Of a stretch of 64,000 bases of DNA, positions 44,097-64,000 are shown piece by piece. Source of the stretch: Yamagishiella unicocca (lineage: Eukaryota; Chlorophyta; Chlorophyceae; Chlamydomonadales; Volvocaceae). The notes under the pieces are model-generated. The model saw nothing but the letters and a program-made list of their open reading frames with translations, ran no database searches and was not told the origin of the DNA. How positions within the stretch are numbered: the stretch's first letter is position 1; every line of letters starts with the position of its first letter. The DNA lies in NCBI GenBank assembly GCA_003116995.1, contig BDSL01000065.1, positions 281,001 through 345,000 of the forward strand. Reading direction: 5' to 3'. A program made the position numbers and the translations under genes.

Positions 44097-47000
44097 CTAC
44101 TGCTCCCAGCGCTCTCTCCCGACCGCGCCTTGCGTGTACGGGCCCGCATAGGGCCCCCCGGATGCTGCACCAGTGGGGTGCGCGCCAGGCCCCCGCTGAT
44201 ACCCCCCGCCGATGCCGTCGGCGCTGTTGGCGTGATAGCCCGCGGGCCCTGCCGAGTGCGACGGGTGGCGCAGCGAGGAGTTGAAGTTGCTGTTCACGGG
44301 GATGGCACGTAGGGATGCGTTCAGGGTGGCCGTGGGTGCGGAGGCGTTCGTCACGGACATGTAGGGCGCCAGTGGCGGGAGGCCGCTGCGGCGACCCAAG
44401 GTGCCGTTCAGGGTGCCGTTGGCGCCGTATATCGGCAAGGGCGGCGAAGACGCCGTGCCCACACCAGGCGGAAGAGGCCCCGCCGATTGCTGCCAAGGTG
44501 TCCCGCCGCCTCCGGCCCTACTACTCCCGTCCGCTGCTATCTGCGACGCGGACACTGAGCCGCTAGGCGCGTCCGGGTGGTGCTGGCCGGTGGGGTGGGA
44601 CCGCTGGTGCGTGTAACTGTAGCTGCCACCCACGTTGCTCCGCAGAGCGGTGGCGTCGCTGCCGCCATCTGCATGCACGAAAGCCGAGTTGGGATAGGTG
44701 ACATAGCCGTTGTTGAAGCTGCTGTTAAGCTGGTGCGAGGGGGCACCTCCCGCCGTGCCCAGGGCCTGCTGGAGCGGCGGCACAGGCAGCACGGGGCCGC
44801 CGAAACTCGTGCGCTCGGGCTGCACCGGGAACTTGGGTGGCGGCAGGTGTGTGGACAAGCCCCCCGGGCCGCTGCTGACGTGCGCCGCCGCGCCGGTCCG
44901 GGAGATCCTGCCCGCGGCTGATCCTGCTGTGGAGTTGAGAGCCGCGGAACCATTTGCTGTGGGGTAGAGCGGGTAGTCCTGCGCCACCGTGGGGTCGGAG
45001 CCAAGCGCCGCGGGGACCAGCGAGTGGTAGAGCTCTGTACTCTTGCCCTGCGGGGTTGGGGGCAGGAGGGCGGGGGGTTGGGGGGAGGAGGGCAAAAGGA
45101 AGAACCTGTACGAAAGGAAAACCGTTTAGGACAGACGTGGGAGGAGGGCGGGGGGTTGGGGACAGAGAGACAGGTAACTGCCACGGACGGAGCAAATCCC
45201 GGACGGAGTCGGGATGACGCAGTCTGGGTTTGCAGAGACAACCCGTGGACTGAGGGGGCTCACCAAGTGCGGGCGGCGGGGGTACGCGAGTGCGGGGGGC
45301 AAGATACTGTGTCGGTTGTGGCTCCGGATACGGGGAGTGGATGCATTCCGTGTAGGAGCAGTTGGGAGCGCAAGGCAGGGAGTGTAGGGTGGGTGGTGGT
45401 GCCGTGCCGGCGAGTCTGCGGCTGCTGAGTGAGGACGAGTGGAGTGAGGACGAGTGGAGTGAGGACGAGTGGGTGGCGACGGCACCGGCAGCCGAACGGG
45501 GCCCGGCTGCAGAGCGCGAGTGACGGACAGGTTGCTGCAATGACCGACAGATGCCCCAGACACGACTCGGGCCCCCTTCCACACAGGGCGTGTCCGAAAC
45601 CTATTCGCCGGTAGGTTTCTGCGTTTCCTTTGTTGTGTACAACCGGGTCTTCTCGCCCACCCCGGCTGGCTCCCCCGCTGCGATCCCAGCGCACTACTGT
45701 ACGGCGCACCTGCCGAATCGACCCGCCGCCGTTCTTGCCGCCCATTGTGCCGTCCAGGCAATTGGGCGGCAGCGTGGACGCGAGGCGCAAGGTCATCTGG
45801 TTCATGTCGCCGTTCTTGAAGTTGTTCACGACGGTCCGCTTAATCTACGGCAGCAACAACGCGCAATCGTGTTAGGCGAGGGAGGCTGCGGCTCGTGTGT
45901 CTTGAGCTGCTTATCATCACGCGCTGTGTCTCTGCCCGAGCGGCCCCCCCCCCCGCCCTTGGTTTGTCGGCCCGTGAATTCGCGGATTATCTTTTATTCC
46001 CCCCAACACACAAAACACGACAGCGATGCAGGGAGCAACCAGCACGCTGGAGGTCGTCCACACGACCCTAATAGGATGAATGATGAGGCGGGAGATAGTG
46101 GGGGGGTGCATGGCAAATTGGCCTAACGATACGGTTTCCCCCAATTTGCCTCCCGCGGGGACAGCAGCGCGACGGAGCAGCCGGCACCTGCTCAGCGCTG
46201 TTGGGACGGGTTTGTGGATGCATGCAGGAGGGGGTTCGCAGGGAGGTCCCCTTGCAGCTTAAAGGAAGAGAACTGCGGCACTTCCATCCCATGCCGGAGC
46301 CATCCACACCCTTACGCTTGCTGCGTGCGTTTCTCTCTCCTTCCTCGACACGCACCCACGCATTCGCGGCTTCGCTGCCAAGAGACGTACGCAGGCCCCG
46401 CAGCACCGCTTTCGCCCTCACCTGACGTTTGCGCTTGTATCGATACAGCAGCAGGCCCACCAACACGATGACGACGACTCCGACGCCAACGCCAATCCCA
46501 ATGAACACCGGGACCTTACTCGACTTTTTGCTGATACTGCCGCCGCCGCCGCTGTCGACTGGCGTAGGAAGCGGGCTGGGGGTCCAACACTGGGCCCCGG
46601 CCGCCCCGCAGATGTACGCTGCGGGGGTTCAGATCCAGATCCAGATCCAGCGCGGGGGGGGTTAGAGGAGACCGGTAGGTCGGCACCGCGGGGAGGGGCG
46701 CGTCAGCGCAGCCATAGTGTCAATAGTGAAGTGGCGAAGGCCGTGCATCGACCCTTTCTCCGCCTCCACATTTCAAAGCTGCTGGTGTTGATACTGCTAC
46801 TCGCCGTCCGTGGCTGTGCGTTGCTACCTTACATAAGAATAAAAATATGCTCGCTCGCCTTTAGACCCAATACGCTTTGCCACCGCCTATCCTGTTGTTA
46901 GCCATCCGCCGCTTCCCGTGGCCTCGATTTTCCCGAAGTAACTCACTCGGCCCATAGGCGACCTGCTCATGCTCGCCCCCCCCCCCTGCTCCCCAGTCAC

Positions 47001-50000
47001 CACCGCCCCCTGCCCACCTTTATTAATCGCCGCTTCCTCCATTCGCTTCGTCAGCGCTGCTCCCGTGTACCTGGTCGCGATGTTCTGAATGGCCGTAACC
47101 AACAGCAGACCGCTGTTGTAGTCAGCAGACATGGCCTGGGGGCGGGAGGGGGGGGCGCCCGTACATACACGTGTTGGCAAGATTGGGGTTGCCGGTTGCC
47201 GGTGTGGATGAGGTCAACCGCTAAGTCAGGAGCTCGAACATGCACCCCATGCAGCCACCCCTGCTTCCATGCCACCCCTGCTTCCATACAGCCCCTGCTT
47301 CCATACAGCCCCTGCTTCCATGCCGCCCCTGCTTCCATGCCGCCCCTGCTTCCATGCCGCCCCTGCTTCCATGCCCACCCATGCTTCCATGCCAACCCAT
47401 GCTTCCATGCCAACCCATGCCTCCATGCCACACGGTCCCAACCTGCAACAACTTACGTTTGCCAGTTCACTGTAGAGGCTGTACTGCAGCACGAAGCCCA
47501 GCTGTGCCGACTTGGTCACCAGGTCGGTCAGGTTGTACGATGTCGTGTAGTCGGGGGTGCCGGCAGCGGCCTTCGACTGGAACTGGATGGCCTGCAGCCG
47601 GGTGTTGATGCCAGACAGAATCTGGGGAGGGAGGGGGCCGCAGCACGGCGTCCGGGGCAGCATGAAGTGGCCGAGGTTGAGGGTTGCAACCATTGCGGGT
47701 GGCTCAAACGACCCAAACGAGCCACAGCATCATCGCAGGTCTGCGTGTGGGTCGCGAATGCAGCGCCCAGACAACAGCCCCTTGCGTGATGGTTCCAGCG
47801 AACCCACCCCGACCTTCAGCCCTGAGACCTCCAGTCCTGAGACCTCCAGTCCTGAGACCTCCAGTCCTGAGACCTTCAGTCCTGAGACCTCCAGTCCTGG
47901 CCTCATACCATGGCCACCAACCGCAATACACGCTCTAAAGCCGGCCTCACCTCCGCCACCTTATTGTACACGTTGACCATGTCCGGATCGTCAACGTACA
48001 CCGCCAGCCGGCGCCGCTTCCGCCCTCCGGCTCCGTTCGTCCGCCGGTCCATGCCTTTGGCCCTTCCGTCCGCCCTCTCATCTCCTCCCCAACCCGCATC
48101 GCCACCCGCCGACTGCCCCAGCTCGAGCCCCAGTTCCATCTGTTGCCGCATCAGCGCCTGCGGGCTCACCACGCCCCCTAGGACCAGGTCAGCACGCACG
48201 CTGCGCGGAAGGCTTGCGGCTGCCAGGTGCCGCGAAGAGGCAGGCCCCAGGCTCTCCTGCACGTGCAACTGCCGCTGCGCCTGGAGATGGCGGCGCCGAC
48301 GGTCGCGGGCTGTGGCAGCGCCGATGGCACTGGCGCTGCCCCCCGACAAAAAGGTCCCCCTTGCGACGGGAGGTGCGTTCTACGACCAGGGCGGGACGTG
48401 AGGCGGGGTTGGACGAGGGGTCAGCCGGTGGGGTGGCAACACGTGCTCGGCCGGGGCCGCGGCTCTCCGACGGGCAGCCAGCAGAGCCGCTTGACAAAAC
48501 ACGGCTGCCCCCGCGAGCTTCGCGCTCAGGTCGGCTGGCCGCGGGAGCTTCGCGCACAGGTCGGCTGGCCCCGGGAGCTTCGCGCACAGGTCGGCTGGCC
48601 CCGGGAGCTTCGCGCACAGGTTTGCATGCTATGCCCTGCGGTAAAGCATGCCTTCAGACCCGGCAGGTCAATATCATCACCAGGGAAGTATCCATCACCA
48701 GGTGGGTAGTCATCACCAGGTGGGTAGTCATCACCAGGTGGGTAATCAACCGACCCGCAGGTCCCTCAACGTGTACTGTGGTGCTTCAAGCGCCTAGCAG
48801 CACCGGCGCCTGACCAGCCAGATCCCACGACGGCGTGGCGGGCTGTTTGTGACCTCCACGACCCCCTGCCTCATCGTCACGTGCCCCAGTCAGCCCGAGG
48901 CATTAGCGGCACCCACCGAGATCGCCTTCGTCAGCACCGTGCTGTTAAAGTAGCACGCCTCTGCCACAAACGCAAACATGGCGTTGAGCTGGTCCTCGGC
49001 CGTAAGGTCCAAGATGCTGTGTATGAGAATTCGCCGGGCAGGGGGAGGGGAGGACAGCAAGTTTGGGTTAGGAGGACGTTCGTCTGCGATATCGTTAGGT
49101 GTTTGCGAGGTGGTGCGAGGTGGTGCGAGGTGGTGCGGTCGTGGACAGCAGGTCACGAGCCATAGGCTGGTGTCCGGGTTCGCAAGAGCCACGCGACTCG
49201 GACGTCGTACTCGCCATACTCGGACGCCGCACTTTGGCATTTGATTGCACCGCTAGCAGGAGACCGTAGCGACCTGACTCACGGACGATTGTGGGTTGTG
49301 GCCGCAGGTTTGGTCCGAATTCGACATAATTGAAAGCAACAACGGCAACGCAATTCATAGCAAAACCGCAGGCAGCCCCATTGCAGAGCAGCCCGTCGTG
49401 GCCCTCTGCTGGAGGTCAAGGAGGCCCCCCAGGCCCTTGTCCAACCACTTCCGTTGTCCAACCACTTCCGTTGTCCAACCACTTCCCTTGTCCAACCACT
49501 TCCCTTGTCCAACCACTTCCCTTGTCCAACCACTTCCCTTGTCCAACCACTTCCCTTGTCCAACCACTTCCCTTGTCCAACCACTTCCCTTGTCCAACCA
49601 CTTCCCTTGTCCAACCACTTCCCTTGTCCAACCACTTCCCTTGTTCAACCACTTCCCTTGTCCAACCACTTCCCTTGTCCAACCACTTCCCTTGTCCAAC
49701 CACTTCCCTTGTCCAACCACTTCCCTTGTTCAACCACTTCCCTTGCCCAACCACTTCCCTTGTCCAACCACTTCCCTTGTCCAACCACTTCCCTTGTCCA
49801 ACCACTTCCCTTGTTCAACCACTTCCCTTGTCCAACCACTTCCCTTGTCCAACCACTTCCCTTGTCCAACCACTTCCTTTGTCCAACCACTTCCCTTGTC
49901 CAACCACTCACCCGCCGCCTTCCTCCGCCAGCACTGCTGCCACGTACGTCGTGAGGGTGCCGATGAACGACACCGCGTTCTCACCGCTGTCCAGGTCGTA

Positions 50001-53000
50001 CGCGTAATAGCAGGATGTGGTGAACAAAGCTCTGCGTGCGTCGTGAAGGGGTGGGCGGCCGGCGGGAGGAGGCGGAAGCAGGAGGGGTGGTGAGTTGGTG
50101 GATTGACTGAGAGGTCAGAGAAGGCCAGTGAAGCCGCAAAGAAGCCTCGCCTGTGGAGGAGAGGTCGGTGCTGAGGGAAGCGGCCGCTACGGCGGCCGCA
50201 TGATACGCCTGGGCGGAGGCAGCAGCAGCACCAACCGAGTCGTACGCTGCCTTACTACGTAAAACGGCATCCATATATTCACGCCGCAAGGGCCGTGCTG
50301 GACGGGGGGCTGAAGTAATCCCGTGCCTAGTAGACGTTTGGGGTTTTCAATCCTTAATATCAGCCCATGTGGGGACCTTTTTACAAGGATTACTACCCTG
50401 GCTTCCGAACTTTAGGTAGCGTTCATGAAACCAACCCCCTTCTGGCAGCGCAGGAGTCCCGAACCCAACCTGACCCAACTGCAGGAACGCGCAATTCCTC
50501 ACACGGCCCAGGCGCGCCCATGGATACCTGATCGCGTAGAACACGCCCACCATCTGCGAGTTGGCAGCGATTACTGCACCCATGAGTGGATGACTCAGGT
50601 TGAATGTTTGAATGCTGGTGAGGACGATTGGAGCGGGAGGCGATGGCGGCAACGGCGGCGGCGATGCCAGCTGCGAGCTCGGCGAGGGCAGTGATGGAGG
50701 CGGCGAGGAGCTTGTGTTGGCGGGAAGGTTGACCATGAACTCGTTGTACGCCGCCAGCTCCAGGCCCATCGCGGTGAAGGCGGCGGTTTGCTGCGCCATC
50801 GTCACGGTGGTTAGTCGCTGCGTCGCCTGGAGCGTGTAGAAGCCCTGGTGCGGCGGCATTTGGGGGTCGGTCCGTGGAGAGACGTTAGGGTTCCATGGGG
50901 ATTGAGGCAGCGTCGGAATGGACTTACGGAACGGGCGTCCGTTTCAAACCGGCTGATACTTACTCCCATGCTATTGTAGTGCCACGGTGCGATCCGTCGG
51001 GCGCGCCGCGCGCACATGGCCATCGTCCTGCCCACCATCAACGTCATGCCCAGCGCCAACAGCCCAGGGAGGTAATACATATGATATCCAAATACCGCCA
51101 AACCTCCTCACCACGCGCTGCATTTCGGGCCCAATCCTACCCTCATTGCCCCCATCTCCTCCTCCCTTGACTGCTGCCATCGAGCCCCAACCATCCATGC
51201 ACCTCCCGCCTGCCGCGACTGCCCATCGTCATGCTGCTTAGGGTTCGCATCTGCAGCGCTCTTGTACTTCCTCGCCAGGTGCCAGGTGGGCTTCCAACCT
51301 CCTTGCTGACTGTTCCCCCTACCACCCCTCATCGACCCTGGCCGCCGGTCTGCGTGGCGTCCCCGGTTGGTGGCTAGATGGCGACATCCGGGCTGTCGTC
51401 TGAACTGCCTCTACTGCTTACACGGACGCTGGCCCGCGTCAGGTTGCGCAGCTAATGGCATTTAGGATGCATGGCTGGTTTCGTCCGTCCCGCATTCTCC
51501 GGTCACCAGCCCACCCGCCCTCAGCCCAGCTCGGCCGGGCTGACCCGGACCGGACCAATCCAGACCCGCCCGCCTAACCACCGCAGACCCACCTGCGCCA
51601 ACATCGCCACAGGTGACACGCTGACAGCGGGCATGGATGGACCCAGGTTTGACACCGTCATGGACAGCTGGATCAGGGAAAGATAGTCTTGGCAGTACCT
51701 ATAGGGCGACACTGCCATGGAGCCCTGTCCCTTGGCCCGCAGCGACACCGCTCCCAGGCCGGTGGTAACGAAGGCCTCATATCTGGGCGTCCACATATCG
51801 TTGGCCTGCCCCACGCAACCATTCAGTGGCCCTATCATGTGGACGGCGCCCGAAGCTGCCACCGGCGCCGCGGGCGGGGGCAAGCCCACGGTGACGTGTA
51901 TAGCAGCCACATCTACGGATGATTTGCTGAGCCGCTCAGGAAGCGCGTCCAGGACGTATGTGTGCAGCGCTGCTGGGTCCGACCCCAGCAGGTTGGACAT
52001 CTGGTTGGCTGCGTCCGCCTGCGTGGCGCGCGGGCGATGCGAGCGTTGGTACCGAAGGGTGGAACCCACACCCACGAAGAAAGAGCGGCCGCCCGAGAGG
52101 TCCGCAGGAAGTAGCCAGGCGGTGGCGCACGCGCTGTGTACGTGGCGGGAGGTGTGTCTAGAAGGGGAAGGGGAGCCCCCTTGAACTCCACCACGCATCC
52201 GGCCGCTTAACCCACGCCCGGATTCTCCCCCGGTGCTATCTTGTTGCGACCTCCGTGTCAACGCAACGCGATTGACAACGCAGGATTTCAACAGGCTCCA
52301 CTCCTAATATCAACACGCATTGTTTGATCTTCCGGGTTTGCACCCTATCACGAAGGTCGGCCCGGCCGTTCTAGGGCCACCTACAAGAGAGCGGGCCTAC
52401 CTGTACGGCCGCGAGCCGTGTGAGTGTTATAAGGGCATTGAGCGGATTAAGGCCCATGTTGCTGCCCATCAGCTCCAGGAGTGCCACCCGCTTCAGCACC
52501 TCTGCATAGGACGAGATGCCGGACACCACCTCAGCGGTGGCGTTGAGCGCGTACGACAGAACGGAAACATTGGCGCGGTTTGCGGCCGCGGTGAGGATGT
52601 CGTACACCACCTCCAACGTGTACAGGCCGCCCACGGATGCTGCCAACGGCGCCGGCGGCGGCGAGGGCGGCGAAGGGACCGGCGAGCCCAACGTGTTGGT
52701 CGCGGCCGTCGCATTCCGTGCCGCTGCTTCTGCCGCCTCCTCAGCTAACAACGCCTGCCGCATCGCTTCCAGTTGGACCAGCTGTCGCATTCCTTCCGCT
52801 GCCACAATGCGTGCCAGCACTGTCACGTTGGCGACTCCCCCGGTGGTGGAGTATACGGACGCGTTCAGCAGCGCTGCGCCCAGCACTGCCAAGGCACCCA
52901 TCTCTACATCCGCCGCCAGCAACGCCACCGCCAGGTTGCGAGTCGTCGCATTGGCACTGGGTAACATGCTGAACGGCTGTAGCTGCAGCGAATCTAGGCC

Positions 53001-53955
53001 GTAGGCATGCAGGCTGATGTTGAACGTGCCATAAAGCTCAGTCATGTTCTGCCGTATTACTGAGGCGTTGTTGGTTAGCTTGCTGGTGGCGCTGGTGCTT
53101 ACGTCCAAGTCGGTGCTGTCTGGCCCAGCTGACACCACGAGCTCCAAGTGCGATAGGCACATGAAGGACGCATAGCCCACACTTGCTTGCGATGCATTTA
53201 ACGGTGCGGCCGCCGACAGCTGGAACGGCAGCGGCAGTTTTGTGAACAGGTCGACGCAAGAGGCGCCCGGCTGAATGTCCACCTACGGCGCAGCGGAAAC
53301 GAAGGTCCTAATAGGCGAAGATGCATAGCAGGACAATCCGAGCGTCAATGCAGTCATCAGGCGGGGGGGGGGGGCACAGCTCGCTACTTATGCTGCATGC
53401 GCGATGAACCCTGTCCCCTTTTTGCAGTAACGGGTAGTCACCGAAAACACGCCAGGTTACACAAAAACCCTACGGCGCTGCCTGACTCACTCTGTAGACC
53501 TCATCAGCATTTTCCGAAAAAGATGCATTAAAGACACCGTTTATGTCCGTGGTGCGGTTCGCGGCCAAGCTGCCACTGCGCATGCCTGATATCCTTGCCT
53601 GTGTACGTTGACCCGGCAGCCGACAAAGAATGTTGGTCAGCCGATCTTTAACCTAGCCGTGCACATACGATACCGTTAACCTGGAGGCAGCTAATAGGGA
53701 GGCGCGCACCTGGCAGCTGCGCAGTGGCCCTGACAGCCGGGCAAGGCCACCCACGATACCTTGACCTGTGATCACGTGAATAGCATTAAAACGAAGCATC
53801 CCATGCAGAATGCATCATCCGCCATCAATTGTGCAGTCTGGCGCGGGACGGCCGACTTAACAACGTCGACACCCACCTTGCACCAGTCGTGGAATGGCAA
53901 ACCATAAAAGCAGGAAAGCAGGAGCTAAAACTGTGGCCCTGAAGTCAGGCCTCAT
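44097..53955 (-). CDS. Gene B: type I membrane glycoprotein with large ectodomain, family not recognised
   Basis: Fourteen exons join exactly in frame to 1,360 aa: 53955-53877, 53765-53710, 53598-53491, 53282-52401, 52018-51593, 50844-50528, 50031-49912, 49016-48917, 48379-47951, 47621-47457, 47135-47018, 46618-46422, 45844-45710, 45047-44097. Order: signal peptide (MRPDFRATVLAPAFLLLWFA); residues ~27-90 with C.....NRTTDINGVF...C, resembling a carboxypeptidase-regulatory-like beta-sandwich (inference); a long helical, Ala-rich ectodomain with about a dozen N-glycosylation sequons in the first four exons; SPVPSPPSPPPAP and SSPPPSLPSP linkers of hydroxyproline-rich-glycoprotein type; one membrane helix at about 971-991 followed by YRYKRKRQ; and a 369-residue Ser/Pro/Gly/Asn-rich cytoplasmic tail without an enzymatic domain. 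Topology suggests a cell-wall-facing adhesion or receptor-like protein, but no function is established. It is a tandem paralogue of gene A. Confidence 0.82.
45048..45709 (-). other. Gene B intron 13 with inverted motifs at both ends
   Basis: In the sense direction the donor side carries AAGACCCGGTTGTACACAAC then AAAGGAAACG (plus 45631-45658). The acceptor side carries CTAAACGGTTTTCCTTTCGT then ACAGGTTCTT (plus 45104-45140), roughly its reverse complement. This is the clearest example of the paired motif found in introns of several genes here. Confidence 0.6.
47255..47430. repeat. 17-18-bp minisatellite in gene B intron 10
   Basis: About ten copies of CCCCTGCTTCCATGCCG-like units lie between exons 47621-47457 and 47135-47018. 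Confidence 0.9.
47818..47898. repeat. 15-bp minisatellite in gene B intron 9
   Basis: Five to six copies of CCTGAGACCTCCAGT. Confidence 0.9.
48526..48745. repeat. 30-bp and 17-bp repeats in gene B intron 8
   Basis: Four copies of a 30-bp unit containing GGGAGCTTCGCGCACAGGTC occupy 48526-48622. Three to four copies of CATCACCAGGTGGGTAGT follow at about 48675-48745. Confidence 0.88.
49437..49908. repeat. 17-bp minisatellite (~27 copies) in gene B intron 7
   Basis: CTTGTCCAACCACTTCC repeated about 27 times with very few variants, beginning two bases after the donor side of the exon that ends at 49912. The open frames over it are artefacts of the repeat. Confidence 0.97.
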
Positions 53956-55712
53956 GTGTGGCCAGGCTCAGAACATTCAAATGTCTTGTCCGGTCATGCG
54001 GCAATATCGGCAAATTATCAAATAGTCACTGCTTTAATAGCTGAACCAGTTGCGGATGCGCTTCGTTATACAGGAAGGTTGTCGGTGTAGGCGATAGCGC
54101 GATACTCATGGCGTTCATAGACACGAAAGCTGTATTCATCATATACATACTGATTTGCGCTGTGTATTGGGTCACCTAATGATTTAGCAAACCCATAAGG
54201 TTTTCGTGGGCCCAAGGCTTGCGTTTCGTTTGCCTGCCGTATATCACACAAGTCCGGCCCGACAACTGCCGCAAGTGCCGATTGAGTCGGCAAGCATTCC
54301 GACCTTTTATAATAACTATTTTGTGCTGGCTCATCTGATAACATTGGTCCCTTATCGGAATTTGGGGCAATATCCAGACTTTCCAACCCACCTGAAGGTC
54401 TACCACGGGTCCTGAGGTTTACCGTCCAATGGAAGGCCCGGCGGGCAGCAGCTATCGGAGCCAAAATAATATATACAGTCCAGATTAGTTGCTTTTGGGT
54501 TTCGCGTCTTGGAGAGTGCCAGAGAGGGATGCGTGCTCATTCGCTGGCTTGGCGGTTCACTGGGGATGGCTTCGCGAAGGACAGGATCGGCGTGTAACAG
54601 CAAGATGGAGCAATGGACTGCTCTGATGGCGATCCAGCCGACCCAGCCGGTGTAGTACAGGTGACCCCAACAGGAAGGGCTGCGCGTCGTGAAGTGCATG
54701 GTCGTTCTGGTAACCCTTGGCAATCCATCAGAACGCAAAGTGAAGAGGTGATGTCCTTCCAAACCTGAATTATATGACTGCCCCCAGGATTGTGAAGGTG
54801 GGGGTCTTAGTGAACCTGCCGTCCTCGACTGCGCCGCGCTAGCGACCATCTCGCACCTTTTGGTGCCATTGGTGCCGGTCTTTTACCTGCCCAAACCCCA
54901 GAGTCACTATCGGACTAGGGGCGCCGCTGGCGGCTGGAACGAATGTCCGGTGGGTTCCGGCCGTGCTGTTCGTGCTTTCCTGGCTGACCGTATTGGCCGA
55001 CTCCAGGCCTGACTGGACGTGCGCTGTCGTTAGCGCTTAGGCTACAACTGACCAGATCGTAGACAAGTTCGCAGGTGAACGCCGCAAGCCGGTTCTGCCC
55101 CGGGTATCCTGATTCCCGACCGAAGCGCGGCCCACAGCTGCACTGTTCCTTGCGGGGCAACAGATGCTCGCCACTGTCGTTACACGTTTGTAACTGGGCA
55201 CCTCGTGCGAGAGGTTACATTGAGCACGGCCGGGATTACCAGGAGTGGCATCCAGCCGTGCTAAGGCGGTGTAGGCTACGTGGGCCCGATATGCGCACCC
55301 TCAGCACCCTATCCGATTGTGAGCCAGCTATTGTCCAACGCCGAAAGCTATCAGACGATATAAGACGACGTCCGTTACTCAGTGTCAACGCATCCTACCT
55401 AACAATGCACCCGCGAGATATTTCACTCCAACCGTCGCGATTCGTGTTTCTGGAGCGGCGCCGTAACCATGACCAATGCCCGCGAATCGACTTTGTCGGT
55501 TCTGGCGCATGACATGGGCACCGACGGGGCGGCATGACCATGTCAGACGCAGAGTGCCCGCACAGGCCCGCAATCAATGCGAATTGGTGATACTCCAGGA
55601 CAGGCATCAGAGGCAAGATGAGCAGCCCACATCAATGCCTGGAAGGGCCTGAAACCAAACCTCCAATCCGATCTGTGCTTGCTGGTTCGACCGTAGCCAC
55701 AGCCAACCCTAT

Positions 55713-55825
55713 GCCTTTTGGGGCGTCTGCTGGCTGCTAGCGCTGGCTTTTCGTACGGTGAGGTCTCAGTATGGGGCCGCCCCTCTTGTCCCCAGCTTGA
55801 CCGGGCTTGCGGACACTTACAATGA
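55713..55825 (-). repeat. Dispersed repeat family, distant inverted copy 9
   Basis: CCTTTTGGGGCGTCTGCTGG, then CTAGCGCTGGCTTTTCGTAC and GCCCCTCTTGTCCCC. Close to the reverse complement of the 19.84-20.01 kb copy, showing that the family is dispersed and not one local array. Confidence 0.7.
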
Positions 55826-57121
55826 TGATATCAAGACGAAGCCCTAACCCGCAATAGATAATTGTCGCGGCGGCAAGCAGATTACATACGCCCGCCTGTA
55901 AATGCAGGACGTTCAGAGGTAAAGCTCTGCGTCGACCTTCGGCAGCACACTGCAACGTCCTAGGTAGGAATAACTGCTACAGTGGGCCCCTGACGCGCTG
56001 CTAGGCATATGAAAATACAGGGTTAGGTGCGTGCACCTGTGGCATGTGTAAAAAACATGTACACGGTTTGCCGCAGCAAAAGCTGATGAGCTCAGGGACC
56101 GCGGCTGCCGTTAGCACTAGTCGTCACGACTAGCCACGAGCAAACGGGAGACGGAATCAGGATGACGCAGGCCTCACTAGTCATCGGCCGACTCTGACGC
56201 TATGTGGCGTAAACTGGCAACCAAGCAATGGCAGCGCAACCCAGTGTAAAGCAATGGAAAAGCACATAGGAATGCAAGACGTTTTAGAGACCTATTAATC
56301 GTGTAGAACGATAAAAAGTGGGATAGGGAAGAAAATCAGGACATGGCCGATAAGGCCGATACTTGGCAGACGCAGGCTTTGGCTTCAATTTCCATGTACC
56401 ACACAATCTGTAAAGTCATGCATTAATCTTTTCCGCATGGTCCGCATACCTCGCTCCGGAGCAACACCGTAACAGAATTCCCCGCCATCCCCTGGCCACA
56501 GCAGCTGCCAGTGTCACGAACGAACGCCCAGGAGCCGAGGGAAGAAGCTACCTCCATGTACCTCTATAGGCTCCGCGGTGGGGATCTGGTTGGGGCATGG
56601 GAAGGCGAGGAGGTGCGCAGGGGCACATGCGGGGGGACGTCAGCACACAAGCAGCAGCACCCATCGAAATACAGCTAGCAGAAGATATAATGCACAGGCG
56701 CGCGACATGGGAAGCCGCACGGAGAGGCCGCACGACTAGTTATCCAAGTTAAGGGATAGGTTGGGATTAAGCCCCGTAAGGCCCGGAAGGAAGGTCTCAC
56801 CGGTGCGTCGTGGGCGGTGGGGCCGTAGCCGAGCTGGGGACCAGGTTCTGTGGTGGGGAAGATGGGCGGGGCCGAAACGTAGTCAGCCAGGATTTTGCGG
56901 TGCATTGGAGGGTACGGGGTTTAGGGTCGCTGCGGTGCGTGGGTTACCAAGGTCACTAAGAAATGCCCATGACCAAAGGAAGGTGATGACGTGAGGTGGA
57001 GCCTTGCAGCCGGCATTACATATGACGTGCATTGGAAGGAGCCTACCCAGAGCCAAGGCACGCAAATTGAGGCCTAAACGTAAGAGAAGCCATTGAGGAC
57101 TAATACCATCCACTGTAACCG

Positions 57122-57126
57122 TTACA
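57122..57126 (-). terminator. Candidate TGTAA poly(A) signal for gene A
   Basis: TGTAA on the minus strand about 175 bases beyond the gene A stop codon. Confidence 0.45.
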
Positions 57127-57300
57127 ACCACCACCTGTCGATTGGCGTTCTGGTGGTTTGCCTTTGTTCCGGTGCACGTCGGTCCTCCGTCTTCCTCAGT
57201 GTCAGGCGATGTGCTCGATGGTTCTACCTTTTGGTCTTGAACCCACTGTAACCGTCACAACAACCACCAGCAACAGCACCATCCACAGGCACGGGCGCCT

Positions 57301-60300
57301 TCACACGCTGCCTGTTGTTGTCTGCCACGTCGCCCCTGCCACGTAAGCACCACATACCGGTGGGGCAAGGCCCTGTGATGAAGGATAGCCTTGGGGCGTT
57401 GCAGCAGCCTGCGGCGTTCCGGGCGCGTCCGGCGTTCCGGGCCCCTCGGGCTGCAGCTCGACACCCTCTCGAGCGCCTTCAACCGTATCGGCCGGCTCCA
57501 AACGGGCATGGGTGCAGTCGTTGTCGCCGTTATTACCGGCAGCGGCAGCAGCAACTTCGGCAGCGGAGATGTCCGCGGTCGGAGCGTTGGATGGCTGCTG
57601 GTCGCTTTTGCTGCAACCAGCAGCAGCAGTAGCATTGGCGGTTGAAGGTCTATGACCGTCCGGCTCGACAGTCACGAGCTGCAACTGACTGGGCTTCACA
57701 ATCGGTGGGAGCTGCAGAGCGGCAGAGATCGTGCGGCGGGGGCATACGCGGGCGGCAGAGTCAGACGAGGGAAAATGTGGACGCTGCGACAACCGCACCT
57801 AACGGGGCTCGTTCTGGTGACGTACGCAGATGTATCCCTGCCCTGCCCACCTTGACGGCCCATCCGGGCATTATGCCGTTCTTCCCAGCAGGCTCGCCGC
57901 CGCCAGGCTCGATAAGGTAGGGCAGCAGCGGAAGCGGGGGGTAGTCCAGTGCGGCCAGGTCCGTGTTGTCGATGACATTGCCCTGGAGGGCCGAGGAGGA
58001 GTGCGGAGGCCCGTTGGTTGGTGGGGATACTAGGGGCCACGAGGATGCGGATGGCGCGGTACCAGGCGAGTCCATCGGCAAGGTGTTTGGGCTTCTCTGG
58101 CCTCACATCGCCATCCCTGCTATCTTCGTCCTACGACGGTGTCCGCCCGGCGAGCCCGCTCTTCCCTGGCGAGTCGCTCTTCCCCTGCCCTGCCCATCCT
58201 TCCCCGGCGAGCCCGCGCTTCCCCTGCCCTGCCCATCCCTCCCCGGCGAGCCCGCTCTTCCCCTGCCCTGCCCATCCTTCCATGCGAGCCCGCCCTTCCC
58301 CTGCCCTGCCCACCTTGACAGCCCATCCGGGCATCATGCCGTTCATCCCAGCATACTCGCCGCCGCCAGGGTAATTGGCGTAGGGCAGCAGCGGCAGCGG
58401 GGGTAAGTCCAGTTCGGCCGGGTCCGTGGCGGCGATGCAATTGCCCTGGAGGAGAGGGGTGAGGAGGAGTGCGGAGGCACGTCGGTTGGTGGGTGCTACG
58501 GGGCACGAGGATGCGGATGGCGCGATACCAGGCGAGTCCATCGGCAAGGTGTTTGGGCTTCTCTGGCCTCACATCGCCATCCCTGCTATCTTTGTCCCAT
58601 GATGATGTTCACATAAGTGTCACCCCACGGCACCATGGATCCGAACGCCCGGGCATACGTGCATACCGGGGACCCTTCCCTAAGGCTTCTTTGCCACGCG
58701 CCGCCCCCAAGCGCTTCATTGCTACCCCAAACAGATAAAACACACCGCACGATACGCACCTGACCACGACGTCTACGACGGCACTGACACACTATAAGGC
58801 AGATCACTATCACTGCTGCAATTACACTCGCAACAACAACTGGTATTAGGAATATTAGTCTGGGGAAAATGCTGCCTGGGGAATTGCCGTCGTCTGGCTT
58901 AAAGCCGACCGGGAGATTGCCGCCGCCAATGCCGCCACCGCCATTGTTGTCTGGCGGTGTCGGTGATGGCGAAGATGTCGGGGGCATGTACCCTGACGCC
59001 TCCTGGGCCTCCGCGAACAACGCTGCGGGGAAGAAAAACGCCACAGGGGCGCGAGCATAGGGAATCCAATGTAAGTCTGCGTACTATAATTCAGGTAAAG
59101 GACCAGGACATGGTCGAGGTGCGTGCCCCCTTGTTTCCCCTAGTGCTCCGCCTGTAGTGTCAACGGTAGTAGTTATTCCAGTATCCTTACAGTATCCCAT
59201 CCGTAGTGTCCATCTTTGTTGTAGCCCTAGCGCCCAAGGCACCCCTCCCTTTCCTGGGGATCTTCACCTGCGTCAAGTTTCACCGCCGCTAGGGCGCCGG
59301 CCAACCGCGGCTCGACGTACGTGGCCGCAGAGGACCACATGGTCGATGCAGACACACTCAAACCGCTTCCAAGGGCCTGCGAACGGCCGGTTCACCAGAT
59401 GCAGGCGACGAGGGCGATTCATTCACTCGCGGCTGTGAGGTGTGGTCCAGGCGAGTTAGCGCGGCAATCGCGTCGGGATCCGAGACCGAAAGGAGGGATG
59501 GGACCTCACTACTGTGGCGAGGAGGTCCGCCGCTTGCGGTAGCCGCAACATGCCGTGGAGGAGCGTGCACTGAAACCCTGAAACTGCACGGCATTGTACG
59601 ATGAGATGAGACCAGACAACGTGCCGTGGAAGGAGCGTGCACTGACACCCTGAAACTGTACGGCATTGTACGATGAGACGAGACCAGACAACGTGCCGTG
59701 GAAGGAGCGTGCACTGACACCCTGAAACTGTACGGCATTGTACGATGAGACGAGACCAGACAACGTGCCGTGGAAGGAGCGTGCACTGACACCCTGAAAC
59801 TGTACGGCATTGTACGATGAGACGAGACCAGACAACGTGCCGTGGAAGGAGCGTGCACTGACACCCTGAAACTGCACGGCATTGTACGATGAGACGAGAC
59901 CAGACAACGTGCCGTGGAAGGAGCGTGCACTGACACCCTGAAACTGTACGGCATTGTACGATGAGACGAGACCAGACAACGTGCCGTGGAAGGAGCGTGC
60001 ACTGACACCCTGAAACTGCACGGCATTGTACGATGAGACGAGACCAGACAACGTGCCGTGGAAGGAGCGTGCACTGACACCCTGAAACTGTACGGCATTG
60101 TACGATGAGACGAGACCAGACAACGTGCCGTGGAAGGAGCGTGCACTGACACCCTGAAACTGTACGGCATTGTACGATGAGACGAGACCAGACAACGTGC
60201 CGTGGAAGGAGCGTGCACTGACACCCTGAAACTGTACGGCATTGTACGATGAGACGAGACCAGACAACGTGCCGTGGAAGGAGCGTGGCTGGGGCTGACT

Positions 60301-63300
60301 GGGTTGGAGCGGGTCGAGACCAGCCTGGAGGTACCGGCGATCGAGACCTATTGGGACCCGTTAGGCGCGGTGCACTGACACCCTGAAACTGTACGACATG
60401 TACGATGAGACCAGCAAACGCAGGCAAAAGTATGGTGCGCACGCACTCACGCGCAGTATGTCGTTGTAGAGGTTGTCCTGCAGCACGACGCCCAGCTGCG
60501 CCGCCTTGGTCACCAGGTCGGTGACGTACGATGACGGGTAATTTTGGGTGGCGGCGGCCGCGTTCGACTGGGACTGGATGATCCTCAGCCGGGTGTTGAT
60601 GCCAGACAGAATCTGGGGGTGGTGAAGAAGCCCGTGTAAACGACGTAAGGGAAAGAGGCGGAAGGACCGGCGAACAGTTTGGGATCACGCGTTTTAAATT
60701 TCGCAGGCCGGAAACGATCGGACAGGGTATAGGGAGTTGAGCGGCAACATCTGCGTGCGCCCTTGAGGGAGCGGCAAAACGCAGCGATGTATGCAGGGGG
60801 CTGGAGCAGGCAGTAAATGCATTGGCAGGCACGCCATGTCTGAAACCCTAAAAGAGTGAATCCCATGACGTAAGTCATCACACGCCTGAAATACGCCTGG
60901 TTGAGATCCGGTCAGGGCCGGGCAGCGCGGCAACGCGACAGGAGGCAGGCAGGGCAGGGAAGCAGCCTAACTGACGACTCATTCACGCCCCGCCAGGGTC
61001 TTGCCTCCGGAAGCATCACCTACCTGGGAGACGGCCATGTACAAATCGACAAGGCTTTGCTCATCAAGGGACAGCGCCCTGCGCCGCGGCCCGGTCGCCC
61101 CATCTCCTGCTCGGTCGGAAGCCCCCGCATCTCCTCCCCAACCCGCGTCACCACCCGCCAACTGCCCCAGGTGCAGCTGGTGCCTGAACAAAGACTCCGG
61201 GCCCAGCACTCCGAATCGCAAAAGATCTGCGCGCAGGCGCTGCTGCTGGCTAGTGCCGGCATCGGGCTGGTAGGTGTCCGACCCCTCGGCCGGCTCGGGC
61301 AGCTGCGTCTGCAGGCGCCGTCCGTTAGCTGTAGCGGCGCCGACGGCGACGACGGCGCTGACCCCTGATAACAAAGTCCCCTTCCCACGGGACGTTGCGC
61401 TCTGCAGCAGGTGCATACGCAGCAGGTTCTTACGCAGTAAAACAAGAAGCGAATGCAAGGAAGGGACACCAAGGCAACGGCGTTTGGTATTGAAGGGCAC
61501 CTAGGACAGGGCGGGCAGCGGGGTGGCTGGGGGACGAGGCCACACCCACCTCGCTGGGGGGCCCCAGCTGTGAGTTGCTGAAGTAGCAGGATGCAGCCAC
61601 GAAGCCGAAGATGTTGTTGAGGACCTTCTCGTTCGAAAGATCCAGGATTCTTTGTTCGTACAATCAAACGAACGGGCGGGACGGGGGCACATGCGTCATG
61701 GCGCGGAAAGCGACAGGGAGTGAATTTCCGCAGGCAAGGCGGGCGGCGTAAAGGCTTAAACGCACTTTTTTTCCAGAGCCGAGCAACTACTTAACGACGA
61801 CAACACGCCGACGCGACCAAATTGTAGCGTATGGTCCTGGGGCGATGGGCAGGGGGCTGCCCTTCCACCCGCCAGATCGCCCCCTGAAGATACGCCCTAG
61901 TTGCGCAGGAGTGGAAGAGCGCCGCAGCAGAAGGTGGCGAAGTGGAAGAGCACCACGGCCGAAACGTGTCCCGCTGCATCTATGATAGCACATCAGCCCG
62001 AGCCCCTGCACACGCACCGCCGCTGCTGGCAGCCCAAGCCCCTGCACACGCATCCGCCGCTGCTGGCAGCCCAAGCCCCTGCACACGCATCCGCCGCTGC
62101 TGGCAGCCCAAGCCCCTGCACACGCACCCGCCGCTGCTGGCAGCCCAAGCCCCTGCACACGCACCCGCCGCTGCTGGCAGCCCAAGCCCCTGCACACGCA
62201 CCCGCTGACAGCTGCTTGCTGCGCGGCCGCATACGTCGTGAGGGTGGTGGTGAGGTCAGCTTCGCCCCCCGCGCTACTGCCGTACGCGTCGAGGCAGTGC
62301 TTGGAAAACATTGCCCTGCAGGGCGAGGTAATCGCCGGGGGCTTGTGAGGAAAGCCCGTGTACGAGGGAGCTGACTAGGAAACCGTCTGTAACCGCCGGA
62401 GGCATCTGAAGCGGTGCTGGGTTAGCCAACGGCGTCAGATGCGGTGGCAATGCTTCATGGCGGCGGGAGAGGAATCAGACCGCCAGAGGACACCTTCGGG
62501 AGCTGCGGGATTTCATTGCGCAAATCGAAGGCCCTACATCATCACAGCTCAGCCGGCGTGCGACTCCAAATGTTTGGGGTTACCGTCATTGTTGCCACTA
62601 AGATCAAGGCGCTACCACTACGCAACGGGATCAGGTATCAAGGTTGGGCACAAGGCAAGGCATTCATTGCGGTTATGCGTCGACATTAGGCATCAAGATC
62701 GCGCAAAAGTTTTCCTAGGCACCAATGTTAGGCTGGGGGAACGGCCGAGCCTGCAGGGTCCGCCCAGCAAGGTACCTACCTGGCCGCGTACAAGACGCCC
62801 ACCAGTTGCGCGTTGGCGGCGATGACGGAAGCCATCAGCGGGTGACCGACGTTGAAGACCTGCTCGGCGGCTTGGGCTGGCGGCATAACCGGAATGGCTG
62901 GCGCGACCCACATTAACGTGAATGGGTCTAAGACTGGCACGGGTGCTGGAGGCGGTGGGGGGGCGGCCTGGACGCGACGAACCATGAAGTCGTTGTACGC
63001 CGCCAGCTCCAGGCCCATCGCGGTGAAGGCGGCGGTTTGCTGCGCCATCGTCACGGTGGTTAGTCGCTGCGTCGCCTGGACCGCGTAGAAGCCCTGGTGC
63101 GGTGGCAGCGCGTGTTGGTTGGGAGTTGGTAAGGAAGTCGATGCAGGTTGCGTACGGAGAGTGAGGAACGTTTGCAGCGGGTCTAGTTGGCGGCAGGACG
63201 TGGCTGGAGCTTGATTTGCGGAGTGCTACCGCCATACTTGCGCGTGCTTGCTTCGCACCCCGACCTACCTGCGCCAGCATCGCCACAGGCGACACACTGA

Positions 63301-64000
63301 TGAAGGGCATGGCTGGACCCAGGTTGGACACCGACATGCCGACACCCAGCCCCGTGAAGCGGTCCTTGCAGTACACATCGGGTGACGTGGCCAGGATGCA
63401 CGTGCCCTTGTCCTGCAAGTCAAACGCGCCGGAGCTGGTGGTGGTGACCTCCGGGCTCGGTGGCCAGATGTTACTGGTTTGGACGCGGCAATCGGCCAGC
63501 GGTCCAATCAAGTGGGCGACGCCCAGTGAGGCTGCTCGCGGCGGGGGTGCGGGTTGGTTGAGCGTGGTGTGGATGGCGGCCAAATCCACGTAAGCCTCCC
63601 GGAGGCGCTGCGGCAGGACATTCGGCTCGTAGTATGAAAGCCATCCTCGGCCAGACGGCGAGGGCACGTTTCCGGCCGCAGCAGCCTGCAGCAGCAGAAG
63701 CAGCAGCAGCAGCAAAAGATGGAGGGAGTTGCGGCCGAGGCCGCCCTTCAAGGGAGTGATTGGGAGGGAAAAGATTCAACGGCGGCCTTGGGTCGCAACG
63801 GAAATTGTACGACGGTGTCGCCCGCTGATGGGTAAAAGGATCCCGGGATATATAACGTTCCTACCTAAAACGTCGATCTCACTGCGTTACTACATTTCTT
63901 GTTGCTCTTAACACGCGCTGCATGGTGAGGTCGGTGTATTGCTTCCGGGCCGGACCTGACATGACATTGCACGTAGGCATCAAAAGGCCTACCTGTACTG
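57301..64000 (-). CDS. Gene A: tandem paralogue of gene B, 5' end off window
   Basis: Twelve exons visible, joining in frame: 64000-63993 (partial, AVQ as in gene B exon 4), 63685-63269, 63093-62780, 62315-62202, 61649-61550, 61401-61024, 60612-60451, 59376-59268, 59022-58760, 58445-58314, 57982-57851, 57783-57301. Every exon up to the membrane exon has a gene B counterpart at the same phase. Shared stretches: SNLGPAMPFISVSPVAMLAQ (SNLGPSMPAVSVSPVAMLAQ in B), TVTMAQQTAAFTAMGLELAA, GGDAGWGGD, and ILSGINTRL. The membrane helix (IFLIPVVVASVIAAVIVICL) is followed by CQCRRRRRGQ. The tail is shorter than in B (a 160-residue last exon) and includes a duplicated 132-bp exon encoding PPLPLLPY...MPGWAVK. 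The signal peptide and N-terminal domain lie beyond the right edge. Function unknown; a cell-surface role is inferred from topology. Confidence 0.8.
57851..58445 (-). repeat. Tandem duplication of a 132-bp cytoplasmic exon in gene A
   Basis: Exons 58445-58314 (GNCIAATDPAELDLPPLPLL...) and 57982-57851 (GNVIDNTDLAALDYPPLPLL...) have identical length and phase and similar flanking intron sequence (for example CCATCGGCAAGGTGTTTGGG at both 58072 and 58542). The duplicated unit is about 463 bp. Confidence 0.85.
58137..58312. repeat. ~37-bp minisatellite in gene A intron
   Basis: About four copies of CCTTCCCCGGCGAGCCCGC plus CTTCCCCTGCCCTGCCCAT-like units between the two duplicated exons. Confidence 0.8.
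59552..60292. repeat. 72-bp minisatellite (~10 copies) in gene A intron
   Basis: Unit contains GTGCCGTGGAAGGAGCGTGC, ACTGACACCCTGAAACTG(T/C)A and GATGAGACGAGACCAGACAA. It lies between exons 60612-60451 and 59376-59268. Because 72 is a multiple of 3 it creates long spurious open frames in several phases. Some copies carry TGCACG where most carry TGTACG. Confidence 0.97.
62001..62208. repeat. 37-bp minisatellite in gene A intron
   Basis: Five to six copies of a unit containing CCGCTGCTGGCAGCCCAAGC and CCCTGCACACGCA. It starts within a few bases of the donor of the exon ending at 62202, the same intron position that holds the 17-bp array in gene B. Confidence 0.92.

What the first reader, a model, noticed from the sequence alone, without database searches (positions are those of the whole stretch)
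44097..64000. Tandem pair of large, undescribed type I membrane glycoproteins (genes A and B)
Two adjacent same-strand genes share exon boundaries, phases and ectodomain sequence over at least eight exons. Gene B has a signal peptide, a cysteine-containing beta-sandwich-like start, many N-glycosylation sequons, Ser-Pro linkers like volvocine wall glycoproteins, one membrane helix and a long low-complexity tail. I recognise no named family. The architecture fits a wall-facing sensor or adhesion protein. The tails have diverged completely while the ectodomains are conserved, so the paralogues may read similar ligands but signal differently.
Basis: partly seen in the sequence, partly recalled or inferred. 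Interest (0 to 1): 0.8.

Follow-up and report, generated by a model that had tools for sequence, protein, structure and literature searches.

The report
Undescribed algal wall-facing membrane receptor family
Two neighbouring genes in a green alga of the Volvox group encode members of an undescribed family of single-pass cell-surface glycoproteins that share a repeated outer domain but each carry a different inner tail, which makes them candidates for the still unknown sensors that tell these algae about the state of their cell wall.

Summary
Gene B (minus strand, 53955-44097, 14 exons, 13 GT-AG introns) encodes a 1,360-aa type I membrane glycoprotein. Gene A is its upstream paralogue; its start lies beyond the window's right edge, and its exons 1-12 keep B's phases.

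New here:
(1) The outer part contains two copies of a ~85-residue Cys-containing module (hhalign E 2.9e-11) matched by no Pfam family at cut-off and no PDB sequence.
(2) B has homologues in six named Chlamydomonadales species; its tail holds conserved motifs.
(3) Four further genes in this genome, three with proline-rich stalks, align collinearly through the membrane helix (E 2.7e-20; reversed control 0.042) and share the module's intron sites (8 of 8 modules).
(4) Tails of the six paralogues look unrelated (15 of 15 pairs within z 2.2), while B's tail matches four tested orthologues (z 3.4-41).
(5) A evolves faster, lacks B's N-glycosylation excess, and shares a 127-bp gene-conversion tract with B.

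Most likely wall-facing receptors or tethers, analogous to yeast Mid2/Wsc but not members. Function is inferred; structure prediction failed.

The parts
53877..53955 (-). gene B exon 1: start codon and signal-peptide-like stretch (aa 1-26)
   Evidence: KD peak
53710..53765 (-). gene B exon 2: first segment of module 1 (GLARLSGPLRSC)
53491..53598 (-). gene B exon 3: module 1, TTDINGVF segment
52401..53282 (-). gene B exon 4: end of module 1 (CVDLFTKLPLPF), helical region, first SP-rich linker
51593..52018 (-). gene B exon 5: helices and module 2 (GPLNGC ... CQDYLS ... VSPVAML)
50528..50844 (-). gene B exon 6: stretch after module 2, second SP-rich linker; contains most of the gene-conversion tract
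49912..50031 (-). gene B exon 7
48917..49016 (-). gene B exon 8
47951..48379 (-). gene B exon 9: variable linker with basic stretches (RRRRHL, KRRRL)
47457..47621 (-). gene B exon 10: juxtamembrane region
47018..47135 (-). gene B exon 11: juxtamembrane region
46422..46618 (-). gene B exon 12: two Cys, Ser/Gly linker and transmembrane helix
46446..46514 (-). gene B transmembrane helix, about aa 969-991, followed by YRYKRKR
   Evidence: KD19 2.95; coordinates computed by hand
45710..45844 (-). gene B exon 13: cytoplasmic, tail motif 1 (IKRTVVNNFKNGDM..MTLRL)
44097..45047 (-). gene B exon 14: rest of the cytoplasmic tail and stop
44961..45032 (-). tail motif 2 (YHSLVPAALGSDPTVAQDYPLYP)
   Evidence: coordinates computed by hand
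44640..44705 (-). tail motif 3 (VTYPNSAFV ... DATALR)
   Evidence: coordinates computed by hand
44262..44411 (-). tail motif 4 (LNGTLGRRSGLPPLAPYMSVTN ... LNASLRAIPVNSNFNSSLRHP)
   Evidence: coordinates computed by hand
63993..64000 (-). gene A exon 4, last 8 bases only; exons 1-3 and the rest of exon 4 lie outside the window (extended coordinates 66283-66202, 66076-66021, 65910-65803, 64760-63993)
63269..63685 (-). gene A exon 5 (module 2)
62780..63093 (-). gene A exon 6
62202..62315 (-). gene A exon 7
61550..61649 (-). gene A exon 8
61024..61401 (-). gene A exon 9
60451..60612 (-). gene A exon 10
59268..59376 (-). gene A exon 11
58760..59022 (-). gene A exon 12: transmembrane helix
58314..58445 (-). 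gene A exon 13: tail, first copy of a duplicated exon
57851..57982 (-). gene A exon 14: tail, second copy (32 of 44 residues identical)
57358..57711 (-). gene A exon 15: tail
56797..56847 (-). gene A exon 16 with stop; least certain exon (another splice ending near 56550 is possible)

Best explanation
A and B are type I plasma-membrane glycoproteins of an undescribed Chlamydomonadales family. The outer part is two copies of a Cys-containing module (GxARxxGPLxxC ... TxxxGxF ... CxDxxTxLxLxF), each followed by a stretch that looks helical, then a further helical-looking region, one membrane helix and a basic stop-transfer (read from sequence). Three of four relatives carry a proline-rich stalk in front of the same ectodomain. 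I infer that the ectodomain touches the hydroxyproline-rich glycoprotein wall, that stalk or SP linkers and glycans hold it there, and that strain on, or loss of, the wall is passed through the single helix to a tail that docks a paralogue-specific cytoplasmic partner. B is the conserved receptor with conserved tail motifs. A is a faster-evolving copy that kept the ectodomain plan but has an unrelated tail, so it would hear a similar cue and speak to a different partner.
For: Gene models, hydrophobic start, one strong TM, sequon excess in B. Internal repeat: hhalign Prob 97.2, E 2.9e-11 for the two modules; five other segment pairs compared in the same call gave Prob 9.1 or less. Homologues in seven named records of six species; three (P0001-P0003) cover B from the start, four (P0004, P0005, P0007, P0009) begin inside the ectodomain, and all seven run through the TM into a tail. 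Family II (four genes) aligns with B over 679 columns, Prob 99.3, E 2.7e-20; reversed control Prob 1.2, E 0.042. Module introns: GT directly after GPxxxCx and AG at, or one codon before, the VxxxxxC segment in 8 of 8 family-II modules and in module 1 of both A and B. Proline-rich open frames before module 1 in C52a (854 aa, 44% Pro), C7 (436 aa, 41%) and C52b (140 aa, 26%). Private tails: 15 of 15 paralogue pairs within z 2.2, against z 41.1, 30.5, 14.0 and 3.4 for B and four of its seven tailed homologues. Literature gap: PMC6704257 (2019; passages read) finds no CrRLK1L or WAK homologues in C. reinhardtii and names only candidate wall receptors; it describes yeast Wsc1/Mid2 as single-TM proteins with O-mannosylated Ser/Thr-rich ectodomains.
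Against: No experiment, expression or localisation data. No known ligand-binding, kinase or adaptor-binding domain was found. A and B have only short SP linkers, and C98 shows no proline-rich stalk, so the stalk is not a constant feature. Family-II pieces were chosen and joined by me for resemblance, in genomic order, which favours the alignment; the reversed control does not remove that bias. The structure models are too poor to show a fold. A tether with no signalling role would look the same. Tail motifs 1-4 were delimited after seeing the alignment, and clustering of invariant tail columns alone is not beyond shuffles (13 in 20 columns; shuffles mean 9.7, maximum 14). A has three further hydrophobic peaks (KD 1.67-2.04) and B one (1.92) besides start and TM.
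Confidence: 0.4

Rival explanations
1. Structural tether: the family anchors the plasma membrane mechanically to the wall, and the tails bind the cytoskeleton or scaffold proteins without signalling.
For: Same anatomy: proline-rich stalks in three of four relatives, glycan-rich ectodomain in B, single TM; no catalytic domain found in B or in 9 homologues.
Against: Six mutually unrelated tails, one of them conserved across species, are more than a generic anchor needs.
Confidence: 0.25
2. Recognition or adhesion molecule of gametes, cilia or inverting embryos rather than a wall sensor.
For: Large glycosylated ectodomain, fast-evolving paralogue A (branch 1.25 against 0.38 for B), tandem duplication and gene conversion, which are common in recognition genes (general knowledge).
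Against: B is 40-50% identical over the aligned part to its four longest first-search homologues and 49-50% to the Volvox ones, with the tail kept; no sex-linked evidence was looked for.
Confidence: 0.13
3. Secretory-pathway cargo receptor or assembly chaperone for hydroxyproline-rich glycoproteins; the conserved Tyr-containing tail motifs are sorting signals.
For: Motifs DYPLYP and TYPNSAFV are short, conserved and Tyr-containing.
Against: Sorting motifs were not tested; stalked relatives look extracellular.
Confidence: 0.12
4. A is a decaying duplicate and only B is a functional gene.
For: A has few sequons (2 against 16 in the ectodomain), lacks the two Cys before the TM and shows none of B's tail motifs above chance; no A-like protein appeared among the 9 hits of a profile search that included A (7994 candidates scored) and none matched A's residues 900-1179 (7987 candidates scored).
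Against: Reading frames, splice sites and phases are intact over 12 shared exons; ectodomain pN 0.36 against pS 0.59 (777 codons outside exon 6) indicates constraint.
Confidence: 0.1

Closest known systems
Yeast Mid2/Wsc cell-wall stress sensors (Pfam PF04478, Mid2)
   Same: Single-pass type I plan, Ser/Thr/Pro-rich glycosylated outer part beside the TM, cytoplasmic tail without catalytic domain; weak Mid2 profile matches at the TM: E 0.17 in B, 9.6e-5 in P0009 (1 of 9 members), 0.0068 in C52b.
   Different: All three matches lie below the curated cut-off and cover only 34-43 residues at the Ser-rich/TM stretch; the algal ectodomain has two Cys-containing modules and helical-looking regions that Mid2 lacks (Mid2 anatomy from PMC6704257 passages and recall).
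Volvocine hydroxyproline-rich glycoproteins (extensin-like and pherophorin-like wall proteins)
   Same: SPPP/PPSP linkers in A and B; proline-rich stalks in three of four relatives.
   Different: Membrane-spanning with a cytoplasmic tail; no pherophorin-type Pfam match in what was scanned. The stalks themselves were not scanned.
MAW8 of Chlamydomonas
   Same: Membrane-attached hydroxyproline-rich wall protein (name and class recalled).
   Different: Described as lipid-anchored with a putative anchoring signal (PMC12002436, passages read), not as spanning the membrane; its sequence was not compared.
Plant wall receptors CrRLK1L and WAK
   Same: Single-pass wall-facing receptors, by analogy only.
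   Different: No kinase or malectin/GUB_WAK match in B or 9 homologues; PMC6704257 reports no homologues in C. reinhardtii.

Membership tests
Mid2 (PF04478) | Profile score at or above the curated cut-off | tested here: not met
   B 12.1 bits, P0009 22.6 bits, C52b 16.6 bits, cut-off 23.2; no Mid2 match at E <= 1 in the other 8 of 9 homologues
Mid2 / Wsc type sensors (works like) | Signal peptide, one TM, glycosylated Ser/Thr/Pro-rich stretch, cytoplasmic tail | tested here: met
   by hydropathy and motif only; no topology or signal-peptide predictor was run, and weaker hydrophobic peaks exist in the ectodomain (one in B, three in A)
Mid2 / Wsc type sensors (works like) | Responds to wall stress and signals to Rho1-type GTPase | not testable with these tools
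   needs experiments
CrRLK1L / WAK / receptor kinases | Cytoplasmic kinase domain and malectin or GUB_WAK ectodomain | tested here: not met
   no such Pfam match in B or in 9 homologues
Pherophorin / extensin-like HRGP | Pherophorin domain (Pfam) | tested here: not met
   no match in B, 9 homologues, six module segments, joined C52b and the first 515 aa of A, or three N-terminal open frames of C98 and C52b
Carboxypeptidase-regulatory / transthyretin-like beta-sandwich | Profile match or confident beta-sandwich fold | tested here: inconclusive
   no Pfam or PDB match for the module; strands in a model with pLDDT near 31-39 there; the resemblance is recalled
The new family (A, B, C52a, C52b, C98, C7) | Two modules, helical-looking regions, one TM in collinear order | tested here: met
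   hhalign E 2.7e-20 over 679 columns, reversed control 0.042; family-II pieces hand-joined
The new family (A, B, C52a, C52b, C98, C7) | Intron after GPxxxCx and intron end at or one codon before the VxxxxxC segment of a module | tested here: met
   8 of 8 family-II modules and module 1 of A and B; module 2 of A and B lacks both; splice sites inferred, no transcripts
The new family (A, B, C52a, C52b, C98, C7) | Proline-rich stalk before module 1 | tested here: not met
   present in 3 of the 4 relatives, absent in C98 and in A and B, so not a defining feature

The most novel reading that the evidence does not exclude
This family is the missing plasma-membrane wall-integrity receptor set of the Chlamydomonadales: one conserved, duplicated strain- or ligand-sensing ectodomain architecture, held in the wall by proline-rich stalks or glycans, joined in each paralogue to a private cytoplasmic tail, so that one wall cue is distributed to several pathways. 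Tandem duplication with tail replacement (A beside B) made new branches.
Probability: 0.22. Interest if true: 0.85.

Novelty: new variant of a known kind. Interest (0 to 1): 0.56.

Why it matters
Chlamydomonas cells sense removal and rebuilding of a protein wall, but in a 2019 study their plasma-membrane wall sensors were only proposed candidates (PMC6704257, passages read). A conserved single-pass family with stalked relatives, a new duplicated ectodomain module and private tails gives a short, testable list, including one gene in C. reinhardtii (XP_001699368.1), where mutants can be made. The module found no Pfam or PDB match and no confirmed relative in a two-pattern scan of a collection of 84,980 prokaryote species, so its fold is an open structural question as well.

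Tried and rejected
Structure: AlphaFold jobs on P0009 (9-row alignment) and P0004 (8-row) gave mean pLDDT 34.3 and 36.8; Foldseek on the P0009 model gave 88 matches with E <= 10 and none with E <= 0.001. I draw no fold from them. Weak profile hits were set aside: Pfam TMEM51, PycTM, Romo1, Lamp2_2nd and others (best E 0.01-0.7), HAMP_2, Bacteriocin_IIc, Tnp_DNA_bind, T2SSM; NCBIfam PRK10591 in 3 of 9 members, best E 0.025; PDB sodium channel beta-2 chains (E 0.0023 and 0.0042, profile positions 854-908, which I take for the TM), a maltose-binding/huntingtin fusion (0.14) and a Fab (0.45).

Polycystin/REJ or GAIN-type ectodomain: my first guess from the Ala/Leu-rich text; no Pfam support, dropped.

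MAW8-type protein: set aside because MAW8 is described as lipid-anchored.

Bacterial origin of the module: A9 scan of genome contigs, two peptide patterns, 75 stretches matched, 0 confirmed.

Origin of A's tail: no match in the protein set (7987 candidates scored) and none in the own genome besides itself; motif-by-motif comparison with B's tail is at chance (278, 438, 443 and 353 of 1000 shuffles reach the score).

Weak own-genome hits C87, C27, C41 (E 0.33-0.67) and C22 (E 0.04) were looked at and not counted as members. Timing of the A/B split: A+B clade 94/91 with 9 rows over B aa 370-999, only 73/79 with 7 rows after leaving out aa 518-548 and exon 10, so it is left open.

Literature: five identifiers of the homologues occur in 0 papers. 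Word searches on wall sensors and membrane HRGPs listed no title describing this family; I saw listings only (15 of 145 papers; 0 papers), and passages of PMC6704257 and PMC12002436. That is absence in this library by these words; supplements were not searchable.

Full report
What is there. The window is G000:C65:281001-345000 of a 133-Mb genome. It starts with a hydrophobic stretch (KD 1.86), ends its ectodomain at one strong membrane helix (KD 2.95 at 973-991) followed by YRYKRKR, and has 16 ectodomain sequons against 6.5 expected from its composition (1 of 2000 shuffles reach 16). One further hydrophobic stretch in B (aa 198-216, KD 1.92) and three in A (KD 1.67-2.04) lie in ectodomain regions; I read them as buried helices, not further TMs, but that is inference. 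Gene A lies upstream. Its first exon is at extended coordinate 66283, outside the window, so the 44097-64000 interval cuts A. Exons 1-12 of A and B have identical phases; exons 2, 3 and 8 have identical lengths.

What the ectodomain is made of. Profile-profile comparison shows that aa 31-118 and 430-511 of B are two copies of one module: GxARxxGPLxxC, then TxxxGxF, then CxDxxTxLxLxF (hhalign Prob 97.2, E 2.9e-11; longer segments Prob 96.0, E 3.9e-9; five other segment pairs Prob 9.1 or less; 10 invariant columns in 11 segments). The sequence after each copy and before the membrane looks helical. Secondary-structure strings of two poor AlphaFold models agree with strands in module 2 and helices elsewhere, but with mean pLDDT 34-37 they prove nothing. 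No Pfam or NCBIfam family reaches its cut-off in B (Pfam only) or in 9 homologues, and the module segments and profiles match no Pfam family at cut-off and no PDB sequence at E <= 5.

Orthologues. The first protein search gave 6 proteins (7992 candidates scored) and the profile search 9 in all (7994 scored): two records from Volvox africanus, one each from V. reticuliferus, Astrephomene gubernaculifera, Gonium pectorale, Chlamydomonas reinhardtii (XP_001699368.1) and C. chlamydogama, and two unnamed ones, P0006 and P0008, which end before the TM. Only P0001-P0003 cover B from its start; P0004, P0005, P0007 and P0009 begin inside the ectodomain, which may be their gene models. Identities in the first search are 40-50% for the four records aligned over 58% or more of the query (P0001, P0002, P0004, P0005), 46% for P0003 and 62% over 19% for P0006. 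Seven of the 9 proteins reach the tail. Motif 3 (TYxNsaFV) is seen in 7 of 7, motif 2 (PAALGxxPxVAxDYPLYP) in 6 of 7, and motif 4 in full in 6 of 7, with a short piece (LNNSMRTV) in C. chlamydogama. Local tail alignments of B with four of the seven (P0001, P0005, P0007, P0009) score z 41.1, 30.5, 14.0 and 3.4 above 100 shuffles each. In an alignment of five of the tails, the motif regions are 57-70% identical to B against 27-42% for the rest, but I drew the motif borders after seeing the alignment, and the clustering of invariant columns by itself is within shuffles (13 per 20 columns; shuffle mean 9.7, maximum 14). So 'long low-complexity tail' understates the constraint on B's tail.

A wider family. 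A weak own-genome hit on contig C52 (E 0.235) had the same module text. Following it gave four more genes: C52a and C52b (a second tandem pair), C98 and C7, plus a fragment on C37. Their open frames give, in genomic order, two modules, helical-looking regions, an RRRL/RRL-type linker, one TM and a tail. Before module 1, C52a has an 854-aa open frame with 44% Pro, C7 436 aa with 41% and C52b 140 aa with 26%; C98 has none, and three N-terminal open frames of C98 and C52b match no Pfam family. From hand-joined exon pieces, family II aligns with the A/B group over 679 columns from aa 31 to 999, TM included (Prob 99.3, E 2.7e-20), while the reversed family-II profile gives Prob 1.2, E 0.042. I chose the pieces for resemblance, which favours this result. 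An independent sign is intron position: GT directly after GPxxxCx and AG at (7 of 8) or one codon before (1 of 8) the VxxxxxC segment occur in 8 of 8 family-II modules, and the same two introns in module 1 of A and of B; module 2 of A and B has neither. In some family-II modules I did not identify the middle TxxxGxF exon. Family size is a lower bound.

Tails. Among the six paralogues all 15 tail pairs lie between z -1.6 and 2.2 (highest B-C7 2.2 and C52b-C7 1.9); family-II tail ends are taken from the last open frame. Together with the conservation of B's tail across species this is a shared-ectodomain, private-tail design; whether family-II tails are conserved across species was not tested. 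The C98 tail holds four RRx[S/T] sites, three of them in an RR.T.SGAE repeat; the C7 tail holds eleven [S/T]P sites, many in a repeat. Whether they are phosphorylated is unknown.

A against B. Outside exon 6 the ectodomains differ by pS 0.59 and pN 0.36 (777 codons). Codons 518-548 of B have pS 0 and 29 of 31 identical codons; the DNA tract is 127 bp at 97%, i.e. recent gene conversion. Exon 10 is also closer (pS 0.20). A's branch is 1.25 against 0.38 for B. The A+B clade has support 94/91 with aa 370-999 and 73/79 without the converted codons and exon 10, so the age of the duplication is open. A has 2 ectodomain sequons (4.5 expected), shows none of the tail motifs above chance and carries a duplicated tail exon (32 of 44 residues identical). 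No protein among 7987 scored candidates matches A's residues 900-1179.

Mechanism. Read from sequence: secreted start, duplicated module, single strong TM, conserved private tail of B, stalked relatives. Inferred: wall contact, mechanosensing or ligand sensing, docking of partners. The nearest functional analogue is Mid2/Wsc; the Mid2 profile touches the Ser-rich/TM stretch in B, P0009 and C52b but never reaches its cut-off, so membership is rejected while 'works like' stays possible. PMC6704257 (passages read) states that C. reinhardtii lacks CrRLK1L and WAK homologues and discusses TRP channels and SRCR proteins as possible sensors; this family is not among those named in the passages I saw. 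The supplements of that paper could not be read.

Limits. The prokaryote scan used two peptide patterns and confirmed no relative among 75 stretches; eukaryote genomes other than this one could not be searched by DNA.

Noticed in passing
window 50732-50858 and 62981-63107: 127-bp tract 97% identical between A and B inside otherwise strongly diverged genes: recent gene conversion of exon 6 and its upstream edge.
   Followed up: yes
window 57836-58608: Tandem duplication of an exon plus flanking intron in the tail of gene A (86% and 92% identical pieces).
   Followed up: partly
window 49434-49925, 62017-62205, 59559-60290: Minisatellites (17, 37 and 72 bp units) in introns; intron 7 of B and intron 7 of A both carry an array, with different units.
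   Followed up: no
L032 and L033 (C52:364500-374400 and 376000-385900): Second tandem pair of the family, with proline-rich stalks of very different length (854-aa against 140-aa open frames).
   Followed up: partly
L034 minus strand, ORF 6300-7794: Cytoplasmic tail with three RR.T.SGAE repeats, looking like repeated kinase sites.
   Followed up: partly
L034 minus strand, ORFs at 929 and 1761: Cys-rich open frames just before module 1 of C98, where the other relatives have a proline-rich stalk; no Pfam match.
   Followed up: partly
L028 (C37:481647-481793): Isolated module exon almost identical to that of C52b; the other family exons searched gave no C37 match: a duplicate fragment, pseudogene or assembly copy.
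   Followed up: no
L031 (C41:277085-277279), minus strand ORF at 1489: Unrelated single-pass membrane ORF whose cytoplasmic start reads like a class III cyclase (recalled motif TDIEGST); Pfam gave no cyclase hit for the piece.
   Followed up: partly
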